Source: a virus. Taken from it: a stretch of DNA of 55,810 nucleotides. Made by a program: the position numbers and the translations under genes. A model generated the notes under the pieces. It searched no databases. It saw only the letters and a program-made list of their open reading frames with translations, and was not told where the DNA came from. The first letter of the stretch is position 1. Each line of letters starts with the position of its first letter. The stretch covers positions 1-55,810 of IMG/VR virus record IMGVR_UViG_3300023184_005760. One strand, 5' to 3'. This document shows, one piece after another, positions 1,804-53,286 of the stretch.

Positions 1804-2541
1804 TTGAGTAGACAGCGATCAGCGAAAGCACAAAAAAGAATGAATCAGGCAGTAGAAAACACCATCAGCTTTAGTCCAGCACCTAGAACGGCACAGCGCC
1901 GCATAGACTTGATCCCTCGCACACGAAATCAAGAACGCTTGGTCATGGCACTACAAGACCCTGACGCCCACATAGTAGTTACAGTAGGTCCCGCAGGTAC
2001 GGGCAAAACTTATCTAGCCATGCAGGCGGCCGTTAAGGCACTGAAGGAAGGTGATTGTGACAGGATCGTAATGACACGCCCAGCAGTGGGTGTGGAGGGA
2101 GAAAGTCATGGTTTCCTCCCGGGCAACTTGGTTGCCAAAATGGAACCGTGGACTCGTCCTTTACTAGATGTCATGCGCGAATATTATCGTGCCCAGGACA
2201 TTGTAGCCCTTATAGAAGATCAGGTAATTGACATTTCGCCACTCTCAATGATGCGAGGTCGAACCTTTAAAAATTCATGGATTATTGCCGACGAAATGCA
2301 AAACGCAACCCCGGCACAGGCCAAGATGTTGATGACTCGAATAGGGACGAATAGTAAGATTGTAATGACCGGAGACGTAGAACAAACCGACATTAAACAT
2401 GGCAGTAATGCTCTTGTCGATTTGTGCGAAAGGTTACAGAAGGGAGGTGGTGTTGAAGGTCTTGTAGTTTGTCCGTTTGAAAATCGCGACATACAAAGAC
2501 ATCCAATTATTAGTAAAATATTGGAAATTTACAAAGATTGA
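1804..2541 (+). CDS. phoH: PhoH-like P-loop ATPase
   Basis: This 245-residue protein has the PhoH core: Walker A GPAGTGKT at 62-69, the TRPAVGVEGE segment at 91-100, Walker B ending DEMQN at 163-167, and MTGDVEQTD near 208. PhoH proteins are cytoplasmic ATPases with proposed RNA-linked roles. They are very common in marine and freshwater phages and are often called phosphate-starvation genes, although the phage function is unresolved. The length fits the short phage form without a PIN domain. The start is a TTG, chosen because AGGAG at 1791-1795 is 8 bases upstream; an in-frame ATG at residue 13 lacks such a site. The gene stands alone on the plus strand between a fibre unit and a minus-strand operon and ends at a strong hairpin terminator. 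Confidence 0.93.
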   Translation: MSRQRSAKAQKRMNQAVENTISFSPAPRTAQRRIDLIPRTRNQERLVMALQDPDAHIVVTVGPAGTGKTYLAMQAAVKALKEGDCDRIVMTRPAVGVEGESHGFLPGNLVAKMEPWTRPLLDVMREYYRAQDIVALIEDQVIDISPLSMMRGRTFKNSWIIADEMQNATPAQAKMLMTRIGTNSKIVMTGDVEQTDIKHGSNALVDLCERLQKGGGVEGLVVCPFENRDIQRHPIISKILEIYKD

Positions 2542-2631
2542 TAGCATACACTATTAATTAACTCGTCACGAGATATTGAACATTCTCTGCCGTTTAGGAG
2601 GTGATAATTTCGTAGATTTCCCGCCAATTTA

Positions 2632-2663
2632 GATAGAGCACTTATCAGTGCTCTATCTTTTTT
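2632..2663 (+). terminator. Rho-independent terminator after phoH
   Basis: A perfect 10-bp stem (2632-2641 with 2648-2657, sequence GATAGAGCAC) and 6-base loop are followed by TTTTTT on the plus strand. Confidence 0.9.
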
Positions 2664-3688
2664 AAATTGTTAGATAAGTCTGCCGAAACAGTTATTTTGT
2701 TTTGGTATTGATTTCGAACTTGTTGCAGACTCTGTAACACTTGATGATAGGTTTCGCTTGATCTATTCATCACATTGTTTTCACGCCACCAGATGGGCGT
2801 CCAATGTCCCCAGTCCAGTAGATTGCTGTAGTACACTGATGCGCTGTACTGATTGGCAAGTTCTGCAAACTGCACAATTTCATGCCAATTGTTTTTTTGT
2901 ACAACAAAGTTTAATTTCATTGGACGTTTCAGCGAGTGAATGTATTCCAATCCCTGCTGTAGTATTTGCCAGTCTGCGCCTCTAACTGTTCGATATGTGT
3001 CAGCACTGGCAGCATCAATGCTGATTGACCAGGATCCTATTAGATGTTTGATATGGTGAATGAGATCTTTGTTTTTTGCTATCAGTGTGCCGTTGGTGGT
3101 AAGTTTTAGTTGCAAATTCAAATGCGGGTAATCCCGCAAGGATTCCAAAAAATTTATTGCACTGTGACTGGCAAAGATTTCTCCGCTGGTCATCGGGGCA
3201 ATTTCAATTGGGTTATAGGGATTGGTCAGACCCCATTGGCGGATCTCTTGATACAACTCAATTTGTTTTTGTATTTTTTCTGAGTTCTTTTCAATGATCA
3301 CTGTTTCCCTGCAACTGGCACATTTGAGATTACAACTCAAGTCAAGATTCATGTGTATTGTCTTGGGGAACAGTTTTACTTGGGGTATTTTGGCTGGGCG
3401 ATTGGGCAGTGTAGATAATTTTGAACAGTCCCAACTACAGTAGGTAAAGTTGCCGTCGACCACAGCTTGCCTTACCAGGTCAGCTTGATGATTGAGCCAA
3501 ATGCTCTGTAGGGAATTTTCAAACACATTGCCAATGGTATACGGCATGTGCAATTGACAGTCACACAATTGCACATCGCCATCATTGTCGATTTGTAAAC
3601 TGCTAAATGGTGTTGAACAAAACTTGTCCTGGTAAATGGGTTTTTTAACAGGAACGTATTTGTAGAATTTCAGCGTGTCTGCATGCAT
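2645..3688 (-). CDS. Radical SAM protein with an N-terminal SPASM-like cysteine domain
   Basis: This 347-residue protein has two cysteine regions. Residues 24-88 hold C24, C42, C44, C84 and C88 around a stretch like SPASM/auxiliary Fe-S domains (CSTPFSSLQIDNDGDVQLC). The radical SAM core begins at residue 119 with C119-x3-C123-x2-C126, the ligands of the catalytic 4Fe-4S cluster. TTNGT (about 198) and SISIDAAS (about 221) fit later strands of the barrel. A cluster domain placed before the core, instead of after it, is unusual; two other genes in this window share this order. Such enzymes modify peptides, sugars or cofactors, but I cannot name the substrate. The gene is last in the minus operon, 3 bases after the HAD gene. 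Confidence 0.88.
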   Translation of the reverse strand: MHADTLKFYKYVPVKKPIYQDKFCSTPFSSLQIDNDGDVQLCDCQLHMPYTIGNVFENSLQSIWLNHQADLVRQAVVDGNFTYCSWDCSKLSTLPNRPAKIPQVKLFPKTIHMNLDLSCNLKCASCRETVIIEKNSEKIQKQIELYQEIRQWGLTNPYNPIEIAPMTSGEIFASHSAINFLESLRDYPHLNLQLKLTTNGTLIAKNKDLIHHIKHLIGSWSISIDAASADTYRTVRGADWQILQQGLEYIHSLKRPMKLNFVVQKNNWHEIVQFAELANQYSASVYYSNLLDWGHWTPIWWRENNVMNRSSETYHQVLQSLQQVRNQYQNKITVSADLSNNLKKIEH

Positions 3689-3691
3689 TCA

Positions 3692-4315
3692 TTACTTATT
3701 GTCTATTATTAATTGGTAGGCTTCCCGCCAATTTTTGACTACCGGAATTTGCTCGTTGGCATGACTCATATTATGACCATGTTCCATTAGGATACTTTTT
3801 AAACCAAGTTCGTGTCCAACTTCAGCATTTTCCGGTTTGTCTTCTACCCACCAGCATCCTGAGTCTCTGTAAGGCTCCAGTGCTTGATTCTTGTCAGCAC
3901 CAGTTTCCAAACAAACAATCAGTTCAAAAGCAGTCTTACCAAACAGTTTGGCGAGATTCATTTCACGCAGACGTTGTGCATTGACATCGGAACTTAGACT
4001 GGTAATACAGTGAAATACATAACCGTGTTCTTCATGCAGTCGTTTCACATAGTACATGGCATCACGCAAGGGCGGCAAGAAACCAATGGCAGCCGATTCG
4101 TTAAACAGTTTGATTAACTTACGACCTTGATCCTTTGATATGCCATAACGCTCACCAATATCGTACACAAAATCAGATCCGGGTTGTTTTTCGTGTCCGT
4201 GTTGCTCCATCCAGATGGCAAAGGCGTACTCCCAGTTCAATAATACGCCATCGGCATCAACTAGGATCAACTGGTTCGGGTTGTACTTGTGTTTTGGGTT
4301 CTTCTGGTTTGACAA
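3692..4315 (-). CDS. HAD-superfamily hydrolase, 5'-nucleotidase-like
   Basis: The protein (207 aa if the TTG at 4315 is used) carries HAD motif I DADGV near residue 20, motif II in ITS near 111, and a late acidic motif in WWVEDKP. These enzymes usually dephosphorylate nucleotides, sugars or phosphoproteins through an aspartyl-phosphate. Size and motif spacing resemble phage and bacterial 5'(3')-deoxyribonucleotidase-like HADs, but the substrate is not determined. The start is uncertain: TTG at 4315 overlaps the upstream gene by 59 bases, and TTG at 4270 would begin right before the first strand. Neither has a good Shine-Dalgarno sequence, so coupling to the upstream gene is likely. Confidence 0.8.
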   Translation of the reverse strand: MSNQKNPKHKYNPNQLILVDADGVLLNWEYAFAIWMEQHGHEKQPGSDFVYDIGERYGISKDQGRKLIKLFNESAAIGFLPPLRDAMYYVKRLHEEHGYVFHCITSLSSDVNAQRLREMNLAKLFGKTAFELIVCLETGADKNQALEPYRDSGCWWVEDKPENAEVGHELGLKSILMEHGHNMSHANEQIPVVKNWREAYQLIIDNK

Positions 4316-4568
4316 TTTCGTATCCGTTCTCTTTGAATAACCGTGTTATGGTCGATTCGTAGTGTTGGTGGTAGTATTCCACAATGCGGTTGAAGTCTCT
4401 AGGAACTGTTACTCCGCTCATGCTACATTTTAACACAGAGAGTGTTCGAAAGTCAAGTATTACATTTGCCGTTTGATGATCGCGACTCTTTAAACTTTTG
4501 GCCACAGCCATCACTTCGTCAATTTGGCCCGTGGCCTTTTGGTAGTAGGTTAGGATTAGGTATCTCAT
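4257..4568 (-). CDS. Conserved hypothetical phage protein (103 aa)
   Basis: The protein begins MRYLILTYYQKATGQIDEVM and ends in a Pro/Glu-rich tail (KPEEPKTQVQPEPVDPS). It looks soluble, with an N-terminal strand followed by helices, and has no catalytic motif that I recognise. I have the impression of similar small proteins in other T4-like phages but cannot assign a function. Its ATG overlaps the stop of the SGNH-like gene (TAATG), so it is translated as part of the same operon. The low-complexity acidic tail overlaps the possible HAD start. Confidence 0.75.
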   Translation of the reverse strand: MRYLILTYYQKATGQIDEVMAVAKSLKSRDHQTANVILDFRTLSVLKCSMSGVTVPRDFNRIVEYYHQHYESTITRLFKENGYEIVKPEEPKTQVQPEPVDPS

Positions 4569-5203
4569 TAGATGTTTCTTTTTAGTATAGAATATGCTAT
4601 CAATTTATGACTTTTGGGCCCGAATGTATTTTTATTTGCTTCAATACTTGAGTCAATGTGGTACTTGTTGTGTATCAAACACTCGGGCAAGTCTACTGGA
4701 TAACTGTTTTCATCCCAGTACAAAAAATCGTGCGGGGTTGATTTTAATACCTGCTGAATTTCTAAATTAAATCGATTGAATTCAGAAATCACAACATTGT
4801 TGGAATTGTTAAAATTCATATGATTGCCATTCCAAAAACGATTGAGATTGTTGATTTGAAAAATCACCCGTCGGGGTGTGATCACAGATAATATCTGTTT
4901 AAGTAGCAACAATTGATCTGCATTGGTATGACCATAGCAACCCCAGGAAAAGTTATAAACTTTGCATTTTAATATGTTGGCAATAATTCCAGCAAATGAC
5001 TGCTCTATTTCTAGTCCCAGCCCGAATGATATGGTATTACCTAGTATTATTATTGGACCATCACAATCATCAAATTCTATGTTTGATCGGTACCCTAAAC
5101 TGTTGAAATGATAATTGGTATTGTTTTTGTTATCGTAGCCAAATTTGGTCACAGTTTGGTTGCGCAAACAATACATGTGATCAGGAGCGACTGGCAATGG
5201 CAT
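4568..5203 (-). CDS. SGNH/GDSL hydrolase-like protein with altered nucleophile motif
   Basis: The 211-residue protein has the layout of an SGNH-fold esterase. Block I reads ILGNTISFGLGL where active enzymes have GDS, block III resembles FQINNLNR, and a C-terminal GPKSHK may hold the histidine. The usual Ser of GDS is replaced by Thr and the Asp before it by Asn, and the Asp of the DxxH pair is missing, so hydrolysis may be lost or changed. SGNH proteins normally remove or transfer acyl groups on sugars or lipids. The gene overlaps the ACP-like gene by 23 bases. A later ATG at 5176 is possible, but 5203 keeps a plausible PDHMYCL strand. Confidence 0.68.
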   Translation of the reverse strand: MPLPVAPDHMYCLRNQTVTKFGYDNKNNTNYHFNSLGYRSNIEFDDCDGPIIILGNTISFGLGLEIEQSFAGIIANILKCKVYNFSWGCYGHTNADQLLLLKQILSVITPRRVIFQINNLNRFWNGNHMNFNNSNNVVISEFNRFNLEIQQVLKSTPHDFLYWDENSYPVDLPECLIHNKYHIDSSIEANKNTFGPKSHKLIAYSILKRNI

Positions 5204-5390
5204 CTGTCAGATCTTTCACAGTTGCAAACCACACATCTGAAATATTAATATCAATATGGAATTGTTTGTTTACAAAATCCACGGTCATGGCCTCATCAAA
5301 TATGTCAAAATTTAAATTGCCAAAAACAGTTGCCAAAGTTAGATCACTGTTGGTATAATTTTTTAGCCAGTCTATTAGAATCTTTTCCAT
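5181..5390 (-). CDS. Acyl-carrier-protein-like protein lacking the prosthetic-group serine
   Basis: At 69 residues it is close to ACP length. Helix pattern and ending match an ACP: a core LNFDIFDEAMTVDFVNKQF followed by ISDVWFATVKDLTDAI, like the DSL...VELV...F...TV.D...I pattern. The serine that carries phosphopantetheine (DS in DSL) is Ile here (DI), so it could not be charged in the normal way. Carrier-like proteins without Ser can act as docking or structural partners. It sits between a sulfotransferase-like and an SGNH-like gene with overlapping ends, which suggests a shared pathway. The ACP call is from pattern alone. Confidence 0.62.
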   Translation of the reverse strand: MEKILIDWLKNYTNSDLTLATVFGNLNFDIFDEAMTVDFVNKQFHIDINISDVWFATVKDLTDAIASRS

Positions 5391-6079
5391 TGCTTGCTGT
5401 TGTAGGTGTCAATTAGTTCAGTGAATTTGTCTTGAGACATTGCGGTTATATTCAGATATCCGCACATGTTGGTATACACATTGAAATTTTTTTCTAGCAG
5501 TTTGTCTACTTCAACTTGATAAGGTGGTATTTTCATTTGTGCCGCCAACTGTTTCCAACTTATAACTTCGTGATTCAAGTTATTTACTAGTAACTTTCTT
5601 TTGATTCGATTATTAATCTTGACTGTGGTCGGGCTATTGATCAATTTGTTCAACTGTTGTTGATAAAATTTGTCACCCTGGGCTCGGTATACTTTTTCAT
5701 AGGCCCATCTTTCGGGCACGTATTTATTTGCGTGTGTGAGGTATAGTACTCGTAAATTTTCAATGAAAGAAAGTTTGTAGGCTATGTTTGGATGACATCT
5801 AAATAAGATCAGTTTATCATCCAACAAGGCTTGTTTGGTATTTTTAGGAATATAAGAATCCCAGTTTTCTTGGTCAACGTCCAATGAATTCCAATAATCG
5901 TGCAGGCCGTGAAACCAGTGCTCATTGTTTTCATGAGCAGTACTGTCACCAAATGATATTCGATCAAGCGGTTTGTATTGATTGACTTCGGGACTCAATG
6001 CCGCCAGTATGTAAATTAAACTTCCACAATATCCAGTTTTGTATGCAATGGCCACCAAATTGTTTTTGGGCAAAAACAT
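5375..6079 (-). CDS. Sulfotransferase-like hypothetical protein
   Basis: This 234-residue protein has an N-terminal strand-loop AIAYKTGYCGSLIYILAAL that resembles the PAPS-binding loop of sulfotransferases. A central segment, ILFRCHPNIA followed by RVLYLTHANKYVPERWAYEKVYR, is like the strand and arginine region that follows in that family. The exact P-loop RxxGTT is absent, so the call is tentative. If correct it would move a sulfo group from PAPS to a sugar or lipid. It overlaps the ACP-like gene by 16 bases and starts 8 bases after the clamp-loader stop, with no visible Shine-Dalgarno sequence. Confidence 0.55.
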   Translation of the reverse strand: MFLPKNNLVAIAYKTGYCGSLIYILAALSPEVNQYKPLDRISFGDSTAHENNEHWFHGLHDYWNSLDVDQENWDSYIPKNTKQALLDDKLILFRCHPNIAYKLSFIENLRVLYLTHANKYVPERWAYEKVYRAQGDKFYQQQLNKLINSPTTVKINNRIKRKLLVNNLNHEVISWKQLAAQMKIPPYQVEVDKLLEKNFNVYTNMCGYLNITAMSQDKFTELIDTYNSKQWKRF

Positions 6080-6087
6080 AATTTTGC

Positions 6088-7011
6088 CTAGTTGATTTGA
6101 CCTAATTCAATCAGGGTGGCACTCAAGTTGATTTCCTGATCAGCCACCAAGGGTATCTTGGCAATGCCATCACGTATGATCACAATGGCCTGATCCTGTT
6201 GTTCAGGTGTGCGGCCCCACAAGTCCAAGTTGTCGTACATCCAGGTGAATATTTCATTGGCTTCTTCGGGAGTGGCATTTTGACACATGAGTGTTCGAGC
6301 TTCTCTAACCCGTCCTTGTTTGAACAAGTCCACACAGTCCAGACGCCAGTCGCCCATGCTCTTGTCTGCCTCCGAAGGAGCAATCAATTGACCTGACTGA
6401 CTGTTGGGTTGCAACAGATTCAGGCACTTGCGCAGGTCTGGGTATGTGGCCTTAACATAGGTATCCAACACATCTAGGTCAAATTCCACACCTTCGCTCA
6501 CCAACACTGTGGCCGCCCGGGCGGTGAACTCGGTATGATCAGTTTTGTTGATTTGCAATTTTTGACAGCGTGAATGCAAGGGTGGAATTATCTTTGAAGG
6601 ATAGTTGCAGGTGAGAATAAATCTCACTGTTTGACTGTAGTCTTCCATCAAGTTGCGCAAGGCTGGTTGTACCGAGTTTGGGTTCATGTAGTCTGCTTCG
6701 TCAATCAGCACAATCTTTAACGTACCAAATGGCATGGTTTGACAAAAACTAATTAATTTATCCACCCACTCGACCTTGCGAGCCTCTTTGGAACCATTGG
6801 CATACATCACATCATACTCATCCACGTCCAGTTCCGAGATCAACATCTTGGCCAAGGTTGTTTTGCCTGTGCCTGCAGAACCCGAAAACATCAGGTGTGG
6901 AATTGATCCATCGCGGATCCATTGTGTCACTTGTTCACGTTGTGCGTTGTCCACAAACACATAACCGTCTACAGTTCGAGGACGGTACTTTTCTACCCAT
7001 AGTTCTTTCAT
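6088..7011 (-). CDS. 44: Sliding-clamp loader ATPase, large subunit (T4 gp44-like)
   Basis: This 307-residue AAA+ protein starts MKELWVEKYRPRTVDGYV, the typical opening of RFC-small/gp44 clamp-loader subunits. It has Walker A GSAGTGKT at 44-51, Walker B IDEAD at 103-107, sensor 1 at about 130-140, and the SRC arginine-finger motif at 147-149. In T4, gp44 tetramers with gp62 load the gp45 clamp on primed DNA. No gp62 or clamp gene is recognisable here. The ATG at 7011 overlaps the stop of the upstream 76-residue gene (ATGA). Earlier in-frame starts are rejected because they read through that gene in another frame. Confidence 0.93.
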   Translation of the reverse strand: MKELWVEKYRPRTVDGYVFVDNAQREQVTQWIRDGSIPHLMFSGSAGTGKTTLAKMLISELDVDEYDVMYANGSKEARKVEWVDKLISFCQTMPFGTLKIVLIDEADYMNPNSVQPALRNLMEDYSQTVRFILTCNYPSKIIPPLHSRCQKLQINKTDHTEFTARAATVLVSEGVEFDLDVLDTYVKATYPDLRKCLNLLQPNSQSGQLIAPSEADKSMGDWRLDCVDLFKQGRVREARTLMCQNATPEEANEIFTWMYDNLDLWGRTPEQQDQAIVIIRDGIAKIPLVADQEINLSATLIELGQIN

Positions 7012-38927: not shown

Positions 38928-38945
38928 GTAATACTCTAGTATTAC
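38928..38945 (-). terminator. Hairpin GTAATAC-TAGA-GTATTAC at the end of the glycosyltransferase gene
   Basis: A 7-bp perfect stem covers the stop codon. A near-identical hairpin occurs at 47800-47817. The T-run on the minus strand is short, so termination may be partial. Confidence 0.55.
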
Positions 38946-40015
38946 TTTATCAAGCCCTGCGAGTGTAGTAATTGCGCAACACAATCTGCTGATCGTTCCC
39001 AACTGAATGCATCACGTATGATAGAACTGTTGGCAAAGGCCCGAGTCTGTAGTTCAGGATAATTGTCTCTGGCAATTCTTAGTGCTTGTCTTATGCTGTC
39101 AACTCTAGGTTGTGCCCACTCTCCCCAGTTGCCATCTTCGGTGGGATAGAAAAACTGATACTCTTGGCAGGTAATGGGAGCCATGTCAAACTCCACAGGA
39201 ATTACACTAGATTGAATCGGTTGTAAAAATTCAGTCTGACCACTATGCATGGTTGTGATGATGGGCAGGCCCGCTGCCGCGGCTTCGATCAAGGGCAGGC
39301 CCCATCCTTCACCCTTGGAGGGCAACACAAACACATGACTCTGTTGATATAAATCAACCAAATCAGACTCTGGCACCGGTCCCCATAACACCCGAACATT
39401 ATTGATCCCTGTGGTTTCTAGCCAGCTAGAAATCTCGTTGTATTTTTCTGTTTGATTTGCAAAATGATCGCTCTTGACCACCAACTCCACGCCAGGGTCA
39501 TTGCCAAACTCTTGAATCCAAGCATATATGGTTTCTATAATGCTTTTTCTCAGTTCATACTTGCCGGCAATGAGATAACTCATGATAGGTGACTCCACTC
39601 GGGGTGCATACGGATGATATTTGGCACTGTTGACCCCTTCTGGAACCACGCGGCATCGATCAGGGTTGGCACCGTTGTCGATCAGGATCTTTCGCCCCCA
39701 CTCACTGGGCACCCACACTTGATCGGCTGCCAACATGGTACTCATTATCGTGGGAGGAACTCGAGTGCTTTCAAACACCACCCACTGTATGTTGGTGCCT
39801 TGATAGTGGTCCTGTATTGGCATGCTCACAAACGAGATGTTGATGTCTTCCGGGCGACTGCGTTCGACCCCAGCCCACAACTCATCTTGGTTATCGCAAT
39901 TGACTTCTTCTACTAGATCACCCAAATAACTCATGCGTCTGAGTGCATCAGCAAAATGGCTGTAATGTACACCTATTCCCAGGGTGTTTCTGTGCCCGAT
40001 CAATCTAATTTTCAT
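38942..40015 (-). CDS. Glycosyltransferase, GT4-type (357 aa)
   Basis: The C-terminal domain has HVFVLPSKGEGWGLPLIEAA and AAGLPIITTMHSGQTEF, the GT4 donor-binding region with the E-x7-E motif. The N-terminal domain starts with KIRLIGHRNTLGIGVHYSHF and has a Rossmann-like pattern with QVWVPSEWGR. Enzymes of this group use nucleotide sugars as donor with retention. The target might be host O-antigen, phage DNA or a lipid. The gene is alone on the minus strand with a divergent set of mini-genes; no Shine-Dalgarno is visible. Confidence 0.88.
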   Translation of the reverse strand: MKIRLIGHRNTLGIGVHYSHFADALRRMSYLGDLVEEVNCDNQDELWAGVERSRPEDINISFVSMPIQDHYQGTNIQWVVFESTRVPPTIMSTMLAADQVWVPSEWGRKILIDNGANPDRCRVVPEGVNSAKYHPYAPRVESPIMSYLIAGKYELRKSIIETIYAWIQEFGNDPGVELVVKSDHFANQTEKYNEISSWLETTGINNVRVLWGPVPESDLVDLYQQSHVFVLPSKGEGWGLPLIEAAAAGLPIITTMHSGQTEFLQPIQSSVIPVEFDMAPITCQEYQFFYPTEDGNWGEWAQPRVDSIRQALRIARDNYPELQTRAFANSSIIRDAFSWERSADCVAQLLHSQGLIK

Positions 40016-40411: not shown

Positions 40412-40821
40412 ATCCAACCAAAATTTTTAATTTTGTGTATCCAGGTGAACACCGGCACTGAAAATTCCAGGCGATAAACGCCATTCCAGCCCAGGTATCC
40501 CTGTCCTGGCAGTGGAGATGTCCGGTTGGAATAATGAGCAGGATATTCCGGATAATACATTCCGGCCCAGACAAACTTGGAATCTGAGATCCCAAAGAAA
40601 CTGATCGATTTTACAATCACTGCGGTGTCAGGATCATGATCCTGTTTTTCAAAATGTTCCACTGAAAGATACCCACTGTCTACGGCATCAAACTCAAAAC
40701 TAAAGTCAGTTTCTGTGATCAGTTTCAGCAGTTGTCCTTGTCCGTTGGCGTCTATGATCACCCAAGGTTGCCCCACAGGCTCAAGAGTCACACGCATTTT
40801 CACCGGGTATTCAGTAGGCAT
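40402..40821 (-). CDS. Hypothetical beta-rich protein paired with a radical SAM gene (139 aa)
   Basis: The protein [20 protein letters not shown], then IIDANGQGQLLKLITETDFS, AVIVKSISFFGISDSKFVWA and GMYYPEYPAHYSNR, looks like a jelly-roll or carbohydrate-binding sandwich. It overlaps the 3' end of the radical SAM gene by 11 bases, so the two are probably made together. It might be the substrate or partner of the enzyme. I do not recognise the family. Confidence 0.7.
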   Translation of the reverse strand: MPTEYPVKMRVTLEPVGQPWVIIDANGQGQLLKLITETDFSFEFDAVDSGYLSVEHFEKQDHDPDTAVIVKSISFFGISDSKFVWAGMYYPEYPAHYSNRTSPLPGQGYLGWNGVYRLEFSVPVFTWIHKIKNFGWIYG

Positions 40822-42112
40822 ACTGTGTCCATATTTGAGTTAGTTCAGGATATAATGATCTAGCATCATATCCATAAACCTGATCCCACTTGCGACAGTG
40901 TTCCACCATGAGTTTCAATTGTGCATCTGCATCTGGTGGTTGATCAGTTGACAACAACTGCAAACACATTTCGGCCTGACGTTTGATTGCCACTTGAAAA
41001 TTGTGAGGGTCATTGGCATTGAAATCATCTGTGGCATTGATTGAATTCAATTGATCAATCAACTGCTGGTATTCAACAGCATACTGCTGTTTGACTGCTG
41101 ACGGCAGATTCACAGCATATAAAAATTTTGGATCGTAGCACAAATTGGATCTAACCAATAACTCATGCTCCAGAGCATACTTCAACAGTGTGTGGTAGTA
41201 GCCTATTGACAGCAAACTGGGTGCCGAACGCAGGGTCACTGTGATATTGGACTTGTTGCACAAATCTCGATAACTTTGGATATTTTTTAATACCTGGGCT
41301 GTGTTGGTGCCTTGCCTTTGATATGCGTTATGATCTGTAACAGTTTCAATGCTGATTTCAATTCCAACCCGTTTGAATTGTTTCAACTTGTGGATCAGGT
41401 CAGGTCGGAACACTGTGCCATTGGTCACAAAACTAAAACACAAATCAAACTTTTTGTGTGCAATCATGGTGTCCACCAAGTTTTCAAGGCGATCGGTCAA
41501 CAGGGTTTCACCACCCATGAAGTGAATGTTGTTTAAATTTTGAATAGTCAATATCTGTTGAACAAAATTGTTCCAGACTCGAGGATCACGAGTCCAATCC
41601 ACTCCCAGATATTTTTTGCTTTCTGTGATTCCCCATTGTACCTGTTGCGACGCAATGGTACTGCTGGCATTGGGCTGACACATTTTGCAGGCTAGATTAC
41701 AAAAATTGCCAAGATTGACGTGCAAGTCAATAGGCATGGTATCAGTAACACCGTTATTGCTGTACTCAAAGTGCTTGCGACTGGGACTTTGCAGATAACT
41801 TTGATCAAAGGCCTGTGCAAAAATCACACTCTTTTGATTTTCCTTGATGCGTTTGCTGTAACTTCCGTGTTGCTCTTCTAGATAACAAACCTTGCAAGGA
41901 GATATTTTTTGTATGCCTTGGATGCCTTGTCTAAACTCACGCACAGGTTCACTGTTGTACCATTGCTCAATGGTCATGTTGGAGATGTTGTACTGCCGAT
42001 CAGTGGCCGGATACAGCCGATGGTCCTCGCTACAACATATACCAAAACTACCGTCCCAGTATATTTGTAGACCGTACCAAGGTACATTGCAAAAAATATT
42101 TTGATTAGGCAC
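40811..42112 (-). CDS. Radical SAM protein with N-terminal SPASM-like domain (433 aa)
   Basis: An N-terminal cysteine domain has C8, C26, C27, C73 and C76 ([20 protein letters not shown], then [10 protein letters not shown]). The radical SAM core begins at C138-x3-C142-x2-C145 ([15 protein letters not shown]), with HFMGGETLL (about 196), FVTNGTVF (about 233) and GIEISIETV (about 254). This is the same auxiliary-cluster-first order as in the 2645 gene. The last 90 residues are helical. The substrate is unknown. It overlaps the ClpP stop by 8 bases on one side and the 139-residue gene on the other. Confidence 0.9.
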
Positions 42113-42698
42113 GTCGATCGAGTATTTTATCCACTAGTCCATAATCCAAGGCTTCTTGAGCTGACATAAAGAAATCACGTTCCATGTCTGCTGATAATTG
42201 CTCAAAGGTCTTGCCCTTGCTGTTGTGCTTGACATAGATCGTGGTCAGATACTCTTTCATCTTTTGGATTTCTCTTGCTTGGATTTGGATGTCTGTGGCT
42301 TGTCCATGAGCACCGCCCGATGGTTGGTGAATCATGTGTCGGGCATGGGGCAGGATCATGCGCTTGCCCGCGGCTCCTGCTGTACTTAGCAGACTTCCCA
42401 TGGAGCAGGCCTGTCCCATCACAATGGTCTGCACATCACACTTGATAAACTGCATGGTATCATAGATAGCCATGCCTGCTGTTACTGATCCACCCGGGCT
42501 GTTAATATATAGACTGATATCTTTGTCTGGATTATCACTTTCCAAAAACAACATTTGTGCTACCAGCAAACTGGCTGTGTGTTCCGATACTTCTGTGTCC
42601 AGCATGATCACACGGTCTTTGAGCAATCGGCTGTAGATGTCATAACTGCGTTCACCTTTTGAGGTTTGTTCAAGCACAATTGGCACTAGATTTGGCAT
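42105..42698 (-). CDS. clpP: ATP-dependent Clp protease proteolytic subunit (ClpP)
   Basis: The 197-residue protein is canonical Clp[38 protein letters not shown], the catalytic Ser99 in GQACSMGS, His124 in [10 protein letters not shown] and Asp171 in [13 protein letters not shown]. It forms a 14-mer chamber and needs a ClpA/ClpX partner, probably from the host. AAGGAG lies 6 bases before the ATG at 42698. An upstream promoter TTGCTT-17-TATACT overlaps the divergent head-internal gene start. It could process phage or host proteins; a second, divergent ClpP-like gene is at 44762. Confidence 0.95.
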
Positions 42699-42721
42699 GG
42701 GGTCTCCTTGTTGAAAGCATA

Positions 42722-42750
42722 AGTATAACAATATTCTTGGAAAAAAGCAA
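42722..42750 (-). promoter_or_regulatory. Sigma-70-like promoter for clpP
   Basis: TTGCTT (42745-42750), 17-bp spacer, TATACT (42722-42727). It overlaps the start of the divergent 42750 gene. Confidence 0.6.
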
Positions 42751-48220: not shown

Positions 48221-49738
48221 ATGACCACATCATTTTGCCACAAAATTCTTGTGTTGGGCAACAATTCACTAATCACTAATCAAGAAGTCGATACTTTGGC
48301 ATCACAGGATCAAACTTGTAATTTTGGTCTGATCACTGATCCAGAATTCATACCCGATTTGCCGGGCTATTATCATACTACCTGTGTGGACCTATCAGTG
48401 GGTGAGATTGCCAGGATGGCACAATATTATGACAGCATAGTGTTGTCCTCCCAGACCGCCGATCAATGGTCCCATCCCACATTATTTTCTGCCACTGTAA
48501 AATTGTTAGAAGATCTGCAGGATCTAGGCCATAATGTTATCATGCAAAGTGCATCAACATCATCAAGAGTGATTTTTAAAAAAATTCTAGAAACCAACAA
48601 GAGTTTTTGCATTTATCCTTTTATGAATTTACAAATTCGCGATGGTGAGAACATGTTGTTGTGCTCAAGATCTCTCACGCCAGTGACCAAAATTCATAAT
48701 CTTGGGAACTGGCAAACCAATGCAGATTATCAACATATTAGAAAACAAATGCTTGCAGGTAACAAATTGCCTAACTTTTGTGGCTTTTGTTACAACATTG
48801 AAAACAAAGGCGGCAAGCCTGCAAGAATATTTGACACTTTAGAATGGGCCCAGCGATTGAATTTACAAAGCCTTGAAGATGCTGAAAAAATCACATCACC
48901 AATGTACTACGCAATCAGGCCCAGCAACAAATGCAATTTGATGTGTAGGTCCTGTGTGCCAAGAGATAGTCATCTGATAGATCAAGAATTCAAACGCATC
49001 AAGATTAAATTGGACAAAGGTTCTCAAGCCGCCGATGGCTATACAGGATTTGAAATTGTAAATTTTGACAATTTAAAACGCTTGTATGTGGCAGGGGGTG
49101 AACCCACTGTGATGCCCGAGTTGTATGATTTTTTACGCAAGTGCATAAGTCAACAACACACGGATTTTGAATTCATGATCAACACCAATGCAGTAAAACT
49201 CAGCGATACCCTGTTGGATTTGTTCAGTCATTTTTCAAATCTAGGATTCAGTACAAGTCTAGATGGTGTGGAACTGGTAAACGATTACATTAGATATCCA
49301 TCAAAATTTGAAAGTGTAATTGACAATATCAAAAAACTCCAAGCAAACGGGCACAAGGTATCATTTATTTCAGTTGTATCTATTTATAATGTGGCCAGTT
49401 TACACAGTCTATTGGAATTCCAAGACAAAGAATTCCCCGGCTCACCGGTACAATTGAATTTTGACAGTTTTTGTAATGATATTCAATCTGCCTTTAATCA
49501 TCCCAACTGTCAGTTGGTACTAGATTCACTGGAGCGATGCAAAAAAACCAAAGTGTATTTCAACTACAGCCGGGGTACCAAAAGTATCATTGACCAATTG
49601 CACCAACACTACAGCAATGCTCCGGCAGTTAACATGCATAAACTCAAAGAATTTTTTGACTTTAATAGAAAACTAGATCAGTCTAGAAATCAAAAACTAG
49701 CCGATTACATTCCAGAATTGGCAGTTTTTGAATGCTAA
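48221..49738 (+). CDS. Radical SAM protein with N-terminal extension and SPASM-like domain (505 aa)
   Basis: The first 120 residues form an extra Rossmann-like domain (HKILVLGNNSLITNQEVDTL; GLITDPEFIPDLPGY; NVIMQSASTSSRVIFKKIL). Residues 130-190 hold C130, C148, C187 and C190 in a SPASM-like arrangement (FCIYPFMNLQIRDGENMLLC). The radical SAM core starts at C238-x3-C242-x2-C245, with YVAGGEPTV (about 291) and FMINTNAV. The auxiliary domain again lies before the core. The substrate is unknown. It starts the plus-strand late block and is probably translated from a leaderless mRNA. Confidence 0.9.
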   Translation: MTTSFCHKILVLGNNSLITNQEVDTLASQDQTCNFGLITDPEFIPDLPGYYHTTCVDLSVGEIARMAQYYDSIVLSSQTADQWSHPTLFSATVKLLEDLQDLGHNVIMQSASTSSRVIFKKILETNKSFCIYPFMNLQIRDGENMLLCSRSLTPVTKIHNLGNWQTNADYQHIRKQMLAGNKLPNFCGFCYNIENKGGKPARIFDTLEWAQRLNLQSLEDAEKITSPMYYAIRPSNKCNLMCRSCVPRDSHLIDQEFKRIKIKLDKGSQAADGYTGFEIVNFDNLKRLYVAGGEPTVMPELYDFLRKCISQQHTDFEFMINTNAVKLSDTLLDLFSHFSNLGFSTSLDGVELVNDYIRYPSKFESVIDNIKKLQANGHKVSFISVVSIYNVASLHSLLEFQDKEFPGSPVQLNFDSFCNDIQSAFNHPNCQLVLDSLERCKKTKVYFNYSRGTKSIIDQLHQHYSNAPAVNMHKLKEFFDFNRKLDQSRNQKLADYIPELAVFEC

Positions 49739-49752
49739 ATCACACAGTGAGT

Positions 49753-49758
49753 TAAATA
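49753..49758 (+). promoter_or_regulatory. TAAATAC late-type promoter for the transporter gene
   Basis: GTTAAATACAAC lies 17 bases before the ATG at 49776, with AAAGGAG between. Confidence 0.5.
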
Positions 49759-49775
49759 CAACAAAGGAGACACAG

Positions 49776-50396
49776 ATGTTTGATATTTTTAAAGGCGTAG
49801 ATCGGGTCATGATGGCCAAATTGGTTGCATTACATATCTTCGTGATCGTAATCAGCAATGCTCTAGTTTCAATTCCGGTTGAGATCATGGGTGTGAAATT
49901 GACATGGGCCGCATTTACCTATCCCCTGGTAATTTTGGCAACAGATTTGACAGTACGATTGATTGGTAAAGGCATTGCTCGAGCAACCATTGCGGCAGCC
50001 TATCCACTTGCCATCATTGGCAGTATTGCTGTTGTGCTGTTAGAAGGCGCACCACAAAGTGTAGCATTACGAATTGGTTTTGGATCCGCCACAGCATACC
50101 TAATCGGTTGTTTGCTGGACGTTTATGTGTTCCAATATGTTCGCGAAAAGTTCACACAACAATGGTGGGCAGCTCCGGCACTCAGCATGGTTGTTGCTAA
50201 CTTCATCGACAGTTACGTATTCTTCAGTATTGCTTTCCAAGGTGGTGCAAACGAGTACATGGCCGCTAACTGGCCTGAGATTGCACTGAGCCAAAGTCTA
50301 TTGAAGATTTTAGTTGGCTTTGTTGTGTTCTTGCCAGCATATGGGCTATTACTAAACTTTATGAAGAAGCGTTTGGGCAACACCGATCAGGGTTAA
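49776..50396 (+). CDS. yhhQ: YhhQ/VUT-family queuosine-precursor transporter
   Basis: This 206-residue protein has five or six membrane helices and the family's central phrase, FTYPLVILATDLTVRLIGKG, with a later DSYVFFSIAF that fits NFxDSxxF. YhhQ imports queuine precursors such as preQ0/preQ1 in bacteria and is found in some phages that modify their DNA with deazaguanine. No queC/D/E/F or transglycosylase gene is in this window. The ATG at 49776 has GGAGAC 5-8 bases upstream; a longer frame from 49728 is rejected because it lacks a ribosome site. Confidence 0.88.
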   Translation: MFDIFKGVDRVMMAKLVALHIFVIVISNALVSIPVEIMGVKLTWAAFTYPLVILATDLTVRLIGKGIARATIAAAYPLAIIGSIAVVLLEGAPQSVALRIGFGSATAYLIGCLLDVYVFQYVREKFTQQWWAAPALSMVVANFIDSYVFFSIAFQGGANEYMAANWPEIALSQSLLKILVGFVVFLPAYGLLLNFMKKRLGNTDQG

Positions 50397-52575: not shown

Positions 52576-53286
52576 ATGACTGAACTAATTGCAACCCTGG
52601 TAATGACACACATTACTATCATTTGTGTCACGCTGTATTTGCATCGCGGCCAGGCCCACCGAGGCATTGAATTTCATCCTGTGCTAGAACACTTCATGAG
52701 ATTTTGGCTGTGGCTAACCACAGGCATGGTAACTAAACAGTGGGTGGCCATACACCGCAAGCATCACAGATTCAGTGACCAGGCGGGAGATCCACACTCA
52801 CCACATGTGTATGGAATTAAGAGAGTTTTCTTCAAAGGAGCATGGTTATATCATGCGGCATCAAAAGATTCGGTCATGGTTGACACATACGGTCGTGGTA
52901 CTCCTGCTGATTGGATGGAGCTTCACGTATACCAGCCTCACAGTAGACTTGGCATTGGCATTCTCTTTGTGCTCGACACCTTGATATTTGGTTGGTGGGG
53001 GCCTTTGATCTGGGGCATACAAATGATATGGATTCCGTTTTGGGCCGCAGGTGTTATTAATGGCGTAGGTCATTGGATAGGATATAGAAATGGACATACT
53101 AAAGATCATAGTCGTAATATTAGTCCTTGGGGCATTGTCATTGGTGGCGAAGAGTTGCATAACAACCACCACCTGGACCCAGCGAGTCCCAAACTCAGCA
53201 AGAATTGGTTTGAGTTTGATATAGGCTGGATGTGGCTGGGCTTGTTTAGGCTGCTAGGACTTGCCCGATTGCGTAATCAGGTGTAG
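52576..53286 (+). CDS. Fatty acid desaturase (delta-9 type, membrane di-iron)
   Basis: This 236-residue protein has the three histidine boxes of acyl-lipid/acyl-CoA desaturases: HRGQAH at 23-28, HRKHH at 60-64 and HNNHH at 195-199. Four membrane segments lie between them (THITIICVTLYL; FWLWLTTGM; GILFVLDTLIFGWWGPLIWG; IWIPFWAAGVI). The boxes bind two irons and introduce a double bond in an acyl chain, needing electron donors from the host. The order fits bacterial delta-9 desaturases, slightly short. It overlaps the convergent Mpo1-like gene stop by 10 bases. Confidence 0.92.
   Translation: MTELIATLVMTHITIICVTLYLHRGQAHRGIEFHPVLEHFMRFWLWLTTGMVTKQWVAIHRKHHRFSDQAGDPHSPHVYGIKRVFFKGAWLYHAASKDSVMVDTYGRGTPADWMELHVYQPHSRLGIGILFVLDTLIFGWWGPLIWGIQMIWIPFWAAGVINGVGHWIGYRNGHTKDHSRNISPWGIVIGGEELHNNHHLDPASPKLSKNWFEFDIGWMWLGLFRLLGLARLRNQV

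What the first reader, a model, noticed from the sequence alone, without database searches (positions are those of the whole stretch)
2645..6079. Radical SAM, ACP-like, SGNH-like and sulfotransferase-like genes in one operon
Five overlapping genes encode a radical SAM enzyme, HAD phosphatase, a 103-residue unknown, an SGNH-like protein, a carrier-protein-like protein and a sulfotransferase-like protein. This resembles a small tailoring or biosynthesis cluster on a carrier, not usual phage functions. It shares a transcript with the clamp loader, so it is expressed with replication genes. A novel modification of a lipid, sugar or peptide is possible.
Basis: partly seen in the sequence, partly recalled or inferred. 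Interest (0 to 1): 0.75.

Follow-up and report, generated by a model that had tools for sequence, protein, structure and literature searches.

The report
Phage sulfotransferase-like, serine-less carrier cassette
A large bacterial virus carries, wedged between its DNA-replication genes, a small mobile set of genes that pairs a sulfotransferase-shaped protein with a carrier-shaped protein that has lost the one residue carriers need, which suggests the virus uses the carrier fold as an adaptor and not as a chemical carrier.

Summary
The six genes at 2645-6079 are real, but they are three different things. (1) The 103-residue gene (u103) and the HAD gene are resident: gp44 - u103 - HAD - PhoH recurs in relatives, and gp44 and u103 abut in 15 of 25. 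(2) The radical SAM gene is a separate insert between HAD and PhoH; such genes are common in this block. (3) The unit of interest is the sulfotransferase-like + carrier-like pair, plus the SGNH-like gene. The same triplet, same order, sits in another phage between primase and helicase (L169); the pair without SGNH occurs in L179, L175 (contig ends there) and L176; in L177 the carrier-like domain is fused to an SGNH protein beside the sulfotransferase-like gene. All five relatives, each found through one member, have the partner. Models support a sulfotransferase fold and an ACP fold. But all six carrier-like proteins have Ile/Leu/Val where ACPs need the phosphopantetheine serine, and the SGNH-like protein has Thr for the catalytic Ser and no DxxH. 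'Biosynthesis on a carrier' is therefore not supported. Best reading: a mobile cassette in which a non-acylated ACP-fold adaptor works with a sulfotransferase-fold enzyme; substrate unknown.

The parts
5375..6079 (-). Sulfotransferase-fold P-loop protein (ST-like), 234 aa; core of the cassette
   Evidence: AF2 model pLDDT 85.5, pTM 0.84; best structural matches are sulfotransferases, Z 11.5; homologues in L179, L169, L175, L176, L177; no Pfam, PHROG or NCBIfam match
5181..5390 (-). ACP-fold protein without the phosphopantetheine serine (carrier-like), 69 aa; core of the cassette
   Evidence: AF2 model pLDDT 63 with only ACP/PCP top matches; profile matches ACP 1vku E 0.0018; Ser position is I/V/L/L/I/L in six homologues
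4568..5203 (-). SGNH-like protein with GNT in place of GDS and without DxxH, 211 aa; optional third member
   Evidence: hhalign 98% with SGNH-type relatives over 70 columns; relatives in L169, L014, L137, L149; residues
4257..4568 (-). u103, resident gene of unknown function; not part of the cassette
   Evidence: follows gp44 in 25 relatives, abutting it in 15
3692..4315 (-). HAD-family phosphatase-like gene (phrog_420), resident; not part of the cassette
   Evidence: tblastn 1355 phage records; synteny
2645..3688 (-). Radical SAM protein with N-terminal SPASM domain; separate insert between HAD and PhoH
   Evidence: Pfam, NF033640 69.7 bits below cut-off; HAD-PhoH distance about -4 to 15 bp in 18 of 20 relatives, 1150 bp here
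6088..7011 (-). Clamp loader large subunit (gp44), left neighbour of the insertion site
   Evidence: phrog_168, 3e-77
1804..2541 (+). PhoH-like gene, convergent right neighbour
   Evidence: Pfam PhoH 8e-67
2631..2658 (.). 12-bp-stem hairpin between the convergent rSAM and PhoH genes; terminator-like on the + strand
   Evidence: z -6.6

Best explanation
A mobile phage cassette whose core is a pair: a sulfotransferase-fold P-loop protein and a small ACP-fold protein that cannot be phosphopantetheinylated, with an SGNH-like third member in some phages. Shown by sequence: the two genes travel together, overlap by exactly 16 bp in five phages, are under purifying selection, and sit between replication genes at two different places. 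Inferred: the ACP-fold protein is a docking or activating adaptor that binds the sulfotransferase-like enzyme (and the SGNH partner, to which it is fused in L177) by protein contacts instead of carrying an acyl chain; the enzyme modifies a hydroxyl group of a host glycan, lipid or peptide, most likely by sulfation from host PAPS; in the window's version the SGNH-like protein binds substrate without hydrolysing it. The confidence refers to this mechanism; that the cassette exists as a unit I hold at about 0.9.
For: Same triplet in L169 at primase-helicase; ST + carrier-like pair in L179, L175, L176; SGNH::carrier-like fusion next to ST in L177. Each relative found through one member has the partner (L179 through ST; L169 through SGNH; L175-L177 through carrier-like); in ten whole records searched with both profiles six have both and four neither. 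Purifying selection. Folds. No Ppant serine in six homologues; no ACPS-family protein in 16 records. Precedent: Plasmodium mACP, Ser replaced by Phe, binds its partner through that Phe and is essential (PMC8547962).
Against: No binding data. The ACP model has modest confidence (pLDDT 63) and hhalign with four phage ACPs gives only 8% probability. PAPS use is not shown: the P-loop Lys is K/K/K/K/R/Q and the classical 3'-phosphate Arg...Ser is not visible. Only six members known, some found with motif-based scans.
Confidence: 0.4

Rival explanations
1. Host ACP mimic: the ACP-fold protein imitates host ACP to occupy an ACP-binding host protein (fatty-acid, lipid A or other enzyme), and the ST-fold and SGNH proteins act on the lipid or glycan pool reached in this way.
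For: ACP fold kept without the prosthetic group; other phages of the wider group also carry ACP-like proteins with Glu or Asp at the Ser position (L102, L103).
Against: Fusion to an SGNH protein and strict pairing with the ST-like gene point to a partner inside the cassette.
Confidence: 0.17
2. The P-loop protein has a sulfotransferase-like fold but is another nucleotide-dependent enzyme or a regulator (kinase-like or inactive), so no sulfation takes place.
For: Guanylate kinases follow at Z 9.5; P-loop Lys and 3'-phosphate residues not conserved.
Against: The best 24 rows of the structural list are all sulfotransferases and align to the C-terminal end of the model.
Confidence: 0.15
3. Chance neighbours: separately acquired accessory genes that share an insertion hot spot but no pathway.
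For: The site collects unrelated cargo; SGNH-like is missing from L179 and L176 and occurs without ST in L137 and L149.
Against: Same pair at two loci, fixed 16-bp overlap, joint occurrence, and a fusion. This rival stays likely for the rSAM and possible for the SGNH-like gene.
Confidence: 0.1
4. One reading: a true biosynthetic carrier system, with an acyl or other intermediate tethered to the ACP, sulfated by the ST and released by the SGNH esterase, as in CurM and olefin synthase ACP-ST-TE modules.
For: Same three folds together; CurM and olefin-synthase ST domains are among the structural matches; related phages do carry canonical ACPs.
Against: No Ser for phosphopantetheine in six homologues, no catalytic Ser or DxxH in the SGNH-like protein, no PPTase in 16 records.
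Confidence: 0.05

Closest known systems
ACP-sulfotransferase-thioesterase modules of CurM (curacin) and cyanobacterial olefin synthase
   Same: Sulfotransferase fold next to an ACP fold and an esterase-type fold; their ST domains match the model (4gbm Z 9.6, 4gox Z 10.1)
   Different: Here free small proteins, carrier without Ser, SGNH-like instead of an alpha/beta thioesterase and without its triad; no polyketide synthase
Plasmodium mitochondrial ACP (divergent mACP), PMC8547962
   Same: ACP relative with a hydrophobic residue in place of the Ppant Ser, under selection
   Different: Partner there is Isd11-Nfs1 in Fe-S cluster assembly; here the neighbours are ST-like and SGNH-like proteins of a phage
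Phage sulfotransferases of unknown role (e.g. OM43 and Synechococcus phages, PMC10580990)
   Same: Sulfotransferase-type gene carried by a phage
   Different: The window's protein falls below all family models and comes with a fixed small partner
Mobile metabolic gene cassettes of T4-like cyanophages (PMC3037559)
   Same: Metabolic cargo at variable places between core genes
   Different: Other cargo; sites here are gp44-u103 and primase-helicase; movement by endonucleases not shown here

Membership tests
Acyl carrier protein (PF00550, PP-binding) | ACP four-helix fold | tested here: met
   Model with only ACP/PCP top matches, Z up to 7.6 over 68 residues, pLDDT 63; profile match to ACP 1vku E 0.0018. 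Moderate confidence
Acyl carrier protein (PF00550, PP-binding) | Serine for phosphopantetheine (DSL motif) | tested here: not met
   I/V/L/L/I/L at the position in six homologues
Acyl carrier protein (PF00550, PP-binding) | Score over the Pfam cut-off | tested here: not met
   No PF00550 match in the window or any cassette record, while it rings in two other phages of the set
Sulfotransferase superfamily | Sulfotransferase alpha/beta P-loop fold | tested here: met
   pLDDT 85.5; NDST1 Z 11.5, 194 residues, 4.1 A; 24 best rows all sulfotransferases
Sulfotransferase superfamily | 5'-phosphosulfate loop with Lys/Arg | tested here: inconclusive
   Y-[KRQ]-x-[GA]-x-C-G-[SQ]-L; the basic residue is lost in L177
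Sulfotransferase superfamily | 3'-phosphate Arg and Ser of PAPS site | tested here: inconclusive
   No clear Arg...Ser; invariant R94, H96, T115, R124-W125 instead
Sulfotransferase superfamily | Sulfate transfer from PAPS | not testable with these tools
   Needs an assay
SGNH/GDSL hydrolase | Overall relation to SGNH proteins (block I to II region) | tested here: met
   hhalign 98.1%, E 8e-14 over 70 columns with GCS/GNS relatives, which are themselves assigned by motif; only two PDB chains in the profile search, both esterases of this kind but at E 0.8 and 1.6
SGNH/GDSL hydrolase | Catalytic Ser of block I (GDS) | tested here: not met
   GNT in window and L014 (found without this motif) and in L169, L137, L149 (found with it)
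SGNH/GDSL hydrolase | Catalytic DxxH of block V | tested here: not met
   H position is T/L/T/P/V; only the later conserved His remains
SGNH/GDSL hydrolase | Gly and Asn of blocks II and III | tested here: met
   G88, N118 and N119 invariant in five members
CurM/olefin-synthase type ACP-ST-TE module | Substrate tethered to ACP by phosphopantetheine | tested here: not met
   No Ser
Radical SAM/SPASM protein (2645-3688) | SPASM domain and CxxxCxxC radical SAM motif | tested here: met
   SPASM over cut-off, Radical_SAM 29.4 of 29.5 bits; CNLKCASC in the sequence
Twitch radical SAM subfamily NF033640 | Curated score cut-off | tested here: not met
   69.7 of 170 bits

The most novel reading that the evidence does not exclude
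Phages carry a mobile two- to three-protein machine in which an ACP fold has been turned into a non-covalent adaptor for a sulfotransferase-fold enzyme, a use of the ACP fold not described in the papers searched, and use it to remodel a host molecule during infection.
Probability: 0.33. Interest if true: 0.8.

Novelty: new variant of a known kind. Interest (0 to 1): 0.6.

Why it matters
The role of sulfotransferases in phage genomes is stated to be unclear (PMC10580990). This cassette gives that question a handle: a constant small partner whose one diagnostic residue is missing. It would also be a further case, after Plasmodium mACP, of an ACP fold kept without its prosthetic group, and it shows that phages place such cargo in the same junctions of their replication genes again and again.

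Tried and rejected
Single-sequence searches for the ST-like, SGNH-like and rSAM proteins in annotated phages and IMG/VR found nothing, as did u103 in annotated phages. phmmer of the single ACP-like, SGNH-like and ST-like proteins against the PDB gave chance matches. Pattern-based scans of 84,980 bacterial and archaeal genomes with the SGNH-like and ACP-like profiles found no relative; this reaches near relatives only. The sulfotransferase-like neighbour in L014 was considered a homologue of the window's ST and dropped: hhalign 0.1%, though it matches Sulfotransfer_1 itself just under the cut-off (E 1.6e-4). hhalign of the ACP-like profile with four phage ACPs: sensible register but 8% probability, E 0.004. 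That the rSAM belongs to the cassette was dropped: some rSAM gene lies between gp44 and PhoH in 11 of 25 relatives, three of them near-identical records, and the window has other rSAM genes. No structure model was made of the SGNH-like protein (cap reached). Bias noted: the scans used GNT and LNFD[IL]FD motifs, so conservation of these positions counts only for members found otherwise (ACP-like: window, L179, L169; GNT: window, L014).
Full report
Observation. The window is a 55.8-kb virus record with T4-like replication genes (clamp loader phrog_168) and a PhoH gene. The six genes exist at 2645-6079 on the minus strand, packed with short overlaps or gaps directly after the clamp loader gene. 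Sharing a transcript with the clamp loader is likely from the packing; it was not tested. A strong hairpin lies between the converging rSAM and PhoH genes at 2631-2658.

What is resident and what is inserted. 80 loci around related clamp loaders were fetched. In 24 of them, and in L179, the 103-residue gene (u103) lies after the clamp loader; in 15 of these 25 the two genes abut, in 10 there is about 0.75-1.4 kb of cargo between them. HAD follows u103, and PhoH lies convergent after HAD, with about -4 to 15 bp between them in 18 of 20 relatives; here the gap is 1150 bp and holds the rSAM. So u103 and HAD are resident, the ST - carrier-like - SGNH-like genes are one insert (gp44-u103) and the rSAM is another (HAD-PhoH). 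Cargo in relatives: several kinds of radical SAM protein (L002, L004, L005, L031, L035 at gp44-u103; L008, L011, L013 at u103-HAD), SGNH-like proteins (L048, L018), an SGNH-like plus another sulfotransferase-like protein on the opposite strand (L014), and an rSAM plus another gene at HAD-PhoH (L018). A nearby rSAM is therefore expected by chance.

The cassette. A scan for the unusual block I of the SGNH-like protein (GNT..FG.G) gave three new true relatives, L137, L149 and L169. L169 holds the whole triplet in the same order, but between a Toprim-domain primase and a DnaB-type helicase: ST 54%, carrier-like 52% and SGNH-like 53% identical to the window. Profile scans then gave L175 and L176 (primase - ST - carrier-like, followed by contig end or helicase), L179 (gp44 - ST - carrier-like - u103 - HAD - PhoH, the window's own site, without SGNH) and L177 (SGNH - SGNH::carrier-like fusion - ST). 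In window, L179, L169, L175 and L176 the ST and carrier-like genes overlap by exactly 16 bp (coordinates). Every relative found through one member has the partner: L179 was found through ST, L169 through SGNH, L175-L177 through the carrier-like protein. In ten whole records searched with both profiles six have both and four have neither; eight further records searched with one profile have no match. The pair is thus the core and SGNH a frequent third member. Codon comparison shows purifying selection: carrier-like dN 0.31-0.36 against dS 1.2-2.6 for the three pairs where dS could be estimated; for ST and SGNH-like dS is saturated.

Folds. ST-like: pLDDT 85.5, pTM 0.84; the best structural matches are sulfotransferases (NDST1 Z 11.5, 194 residues, 4.1 A; 3-OST, TPST, olefin synthase, CurM), with guanylate kinases behind at 9.5; in the viral library the best named matches are phage and giant-virus sulfotransferases, most others are unnamed. 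Carrier-like: pLDDT 63, helices 2-13, 30-44 and 54-67; the listed top matches are ACP or PCP domains or proteins that contain them, best Z 7.6 over 68 residues; the profile finds one significant PDB chain, the ACP 1vku, E 0.0018, with its DSI aligned to our DLF/DIF. Small helical bundles score middling Z by chance, so this stays moderate; sequence profile and fold search agree, and phrog_18343, the weak best PHROG match of the window protein, is also matched in the same part by a canonical phage ACP. SGNH-like: hhalign 98% over 70 columns with relatives that keep GCS or GNS and a D..H; those references are assigned by motif, since Pfam does not reach them.

What is missing. The phosphopantetheine Ser position is I/V/L/L/I/L. 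Three of these (window, L179, L169) were found without that motif. The SGNH-like family has GNT and lacks DxxH; Thr is fixed by the search in three of five members but not in window and L014. The SGNH domain fused to the carrier-like domain in L177 keeps GCS and D..H. No ACPS-family protein was found in 16 records, and PF00550 does not ring in cassette records although it rings in two other phages of that set.

Mechanism. Loading with phosphopantetheine is excluded for the carrier-like protein as far as sequence can exclude it. The pairing, the fixed overlap and the fusion call for a protein-protein role. A Ser-less ACP that works by inserting a hydrophobic side chain into a partner is known (Plasmodium mACP Phe113, PMC8547962). 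I therefore propose that the carrier-like protein is a non-covalent adaptor of the ST-fold enzyme, and that the SGNH-like protein supplies substrate binding. Substrate and PAPS use are inferred; the P-loop Lys varies (K/K/K/K/R/Q) and the usual 3'-phosphate motif is not visible.

Setting. The primase-helicase junction is a second cargo site: rSAM in L207 and L208, the cassette in L169, L175 and L176, and a GIY-YIG-type protein just upstream of the primase in L175 (just under the cut-off). Endonuclease-flanked mobile cassettes are known in T4-like cyanophages (PMC3037559); that this cassette moves in the same way is inference. rSAM gene cassettes in pelagimyophage host-recognition clusters are also reported (PMC7029224).

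Novelty. No annotated phage of 50,697 (tblastn with the window's ST-like and SGNH-like proteins and the L177 fusion and ST) and no genome of 84,980 (pattern search only) showed a relative; no Pfam, PHROG or NCBIfam model covers the three proteins. The folds and the habit of carrying metabolic cargo are known; a Ser-less ACP paired with a sulfotransferase-fold protein was not found in the papers searched.

Noticed in passing
L102:7727-7957 (-) and L103:7597-7821 (+): ACP-like proteins in more distant relatives with Glu or Asp at the phosphopantetheine Ser position (LDGDEID, LGADDFD), in lysis-type gene neighbourhoods; they match phrog_5934 'acyl carrier protein'. Loss of the Ser may have happened more than once in phages.
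   Followed up: partly
L104:8695-8937 (-): Canonical phage ACP (LGADSLD) lying between what look like ribonucleotide reductase subunit genes and a glutaredoxin gene.
   Followed up: no
L099:6300-8481 (-): A canonical ACP next to a fatty-acid-desaturase-like and a beta-ketoacyl-ACP-synthase-like gene in a 364-kb phage record of the same group.
   Followed up: no
L100:5568-11695 (-): Cluster in the same record with a sugar epimerase-like gene, two SGNH-like genes, two N-SPASM radical SAM genes and an oxygenase-like gene; SGNH and rSAM overlap by 4 bp.
   Followed up: no
window 38942-40015, 40811-42112, 42105-42731, 48221-50396, 52576-53286: Further cargo in the window: a group 1 glycosyltransferase, a second SPASM radical SAM gene overlapping ClpP, a third radical SAM gene followed by a Vut_1 transporter gene, and a fatty acid desaturase.
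   Followed up: partly
L175:3605-4264 (+); L210:737-1366 (-); L015:3971-4687 (+): GIY-YIG-type protein beside the primase in L175 and, by eye only, endonuclease-like ORFs at primase-helicase in L210 and at gp44-u103 in L015 (no Pfam match): the same junctions that collect metabolic cargo.
   Followed up: partly
L018:12611-14343 (-): Radical SAM gene plus a 248-aa P-loop-like gene between HAD and PhoH, antisense to HAD; the second site where the window has its rSAM.
   Followed up: partly
window 4257-4568: u103 is kept next to gp44 in 25 large-phage loci yet has no Pfam, PHROG or NCBIfam match and no hit in annotated phages.
   Followed up: partly
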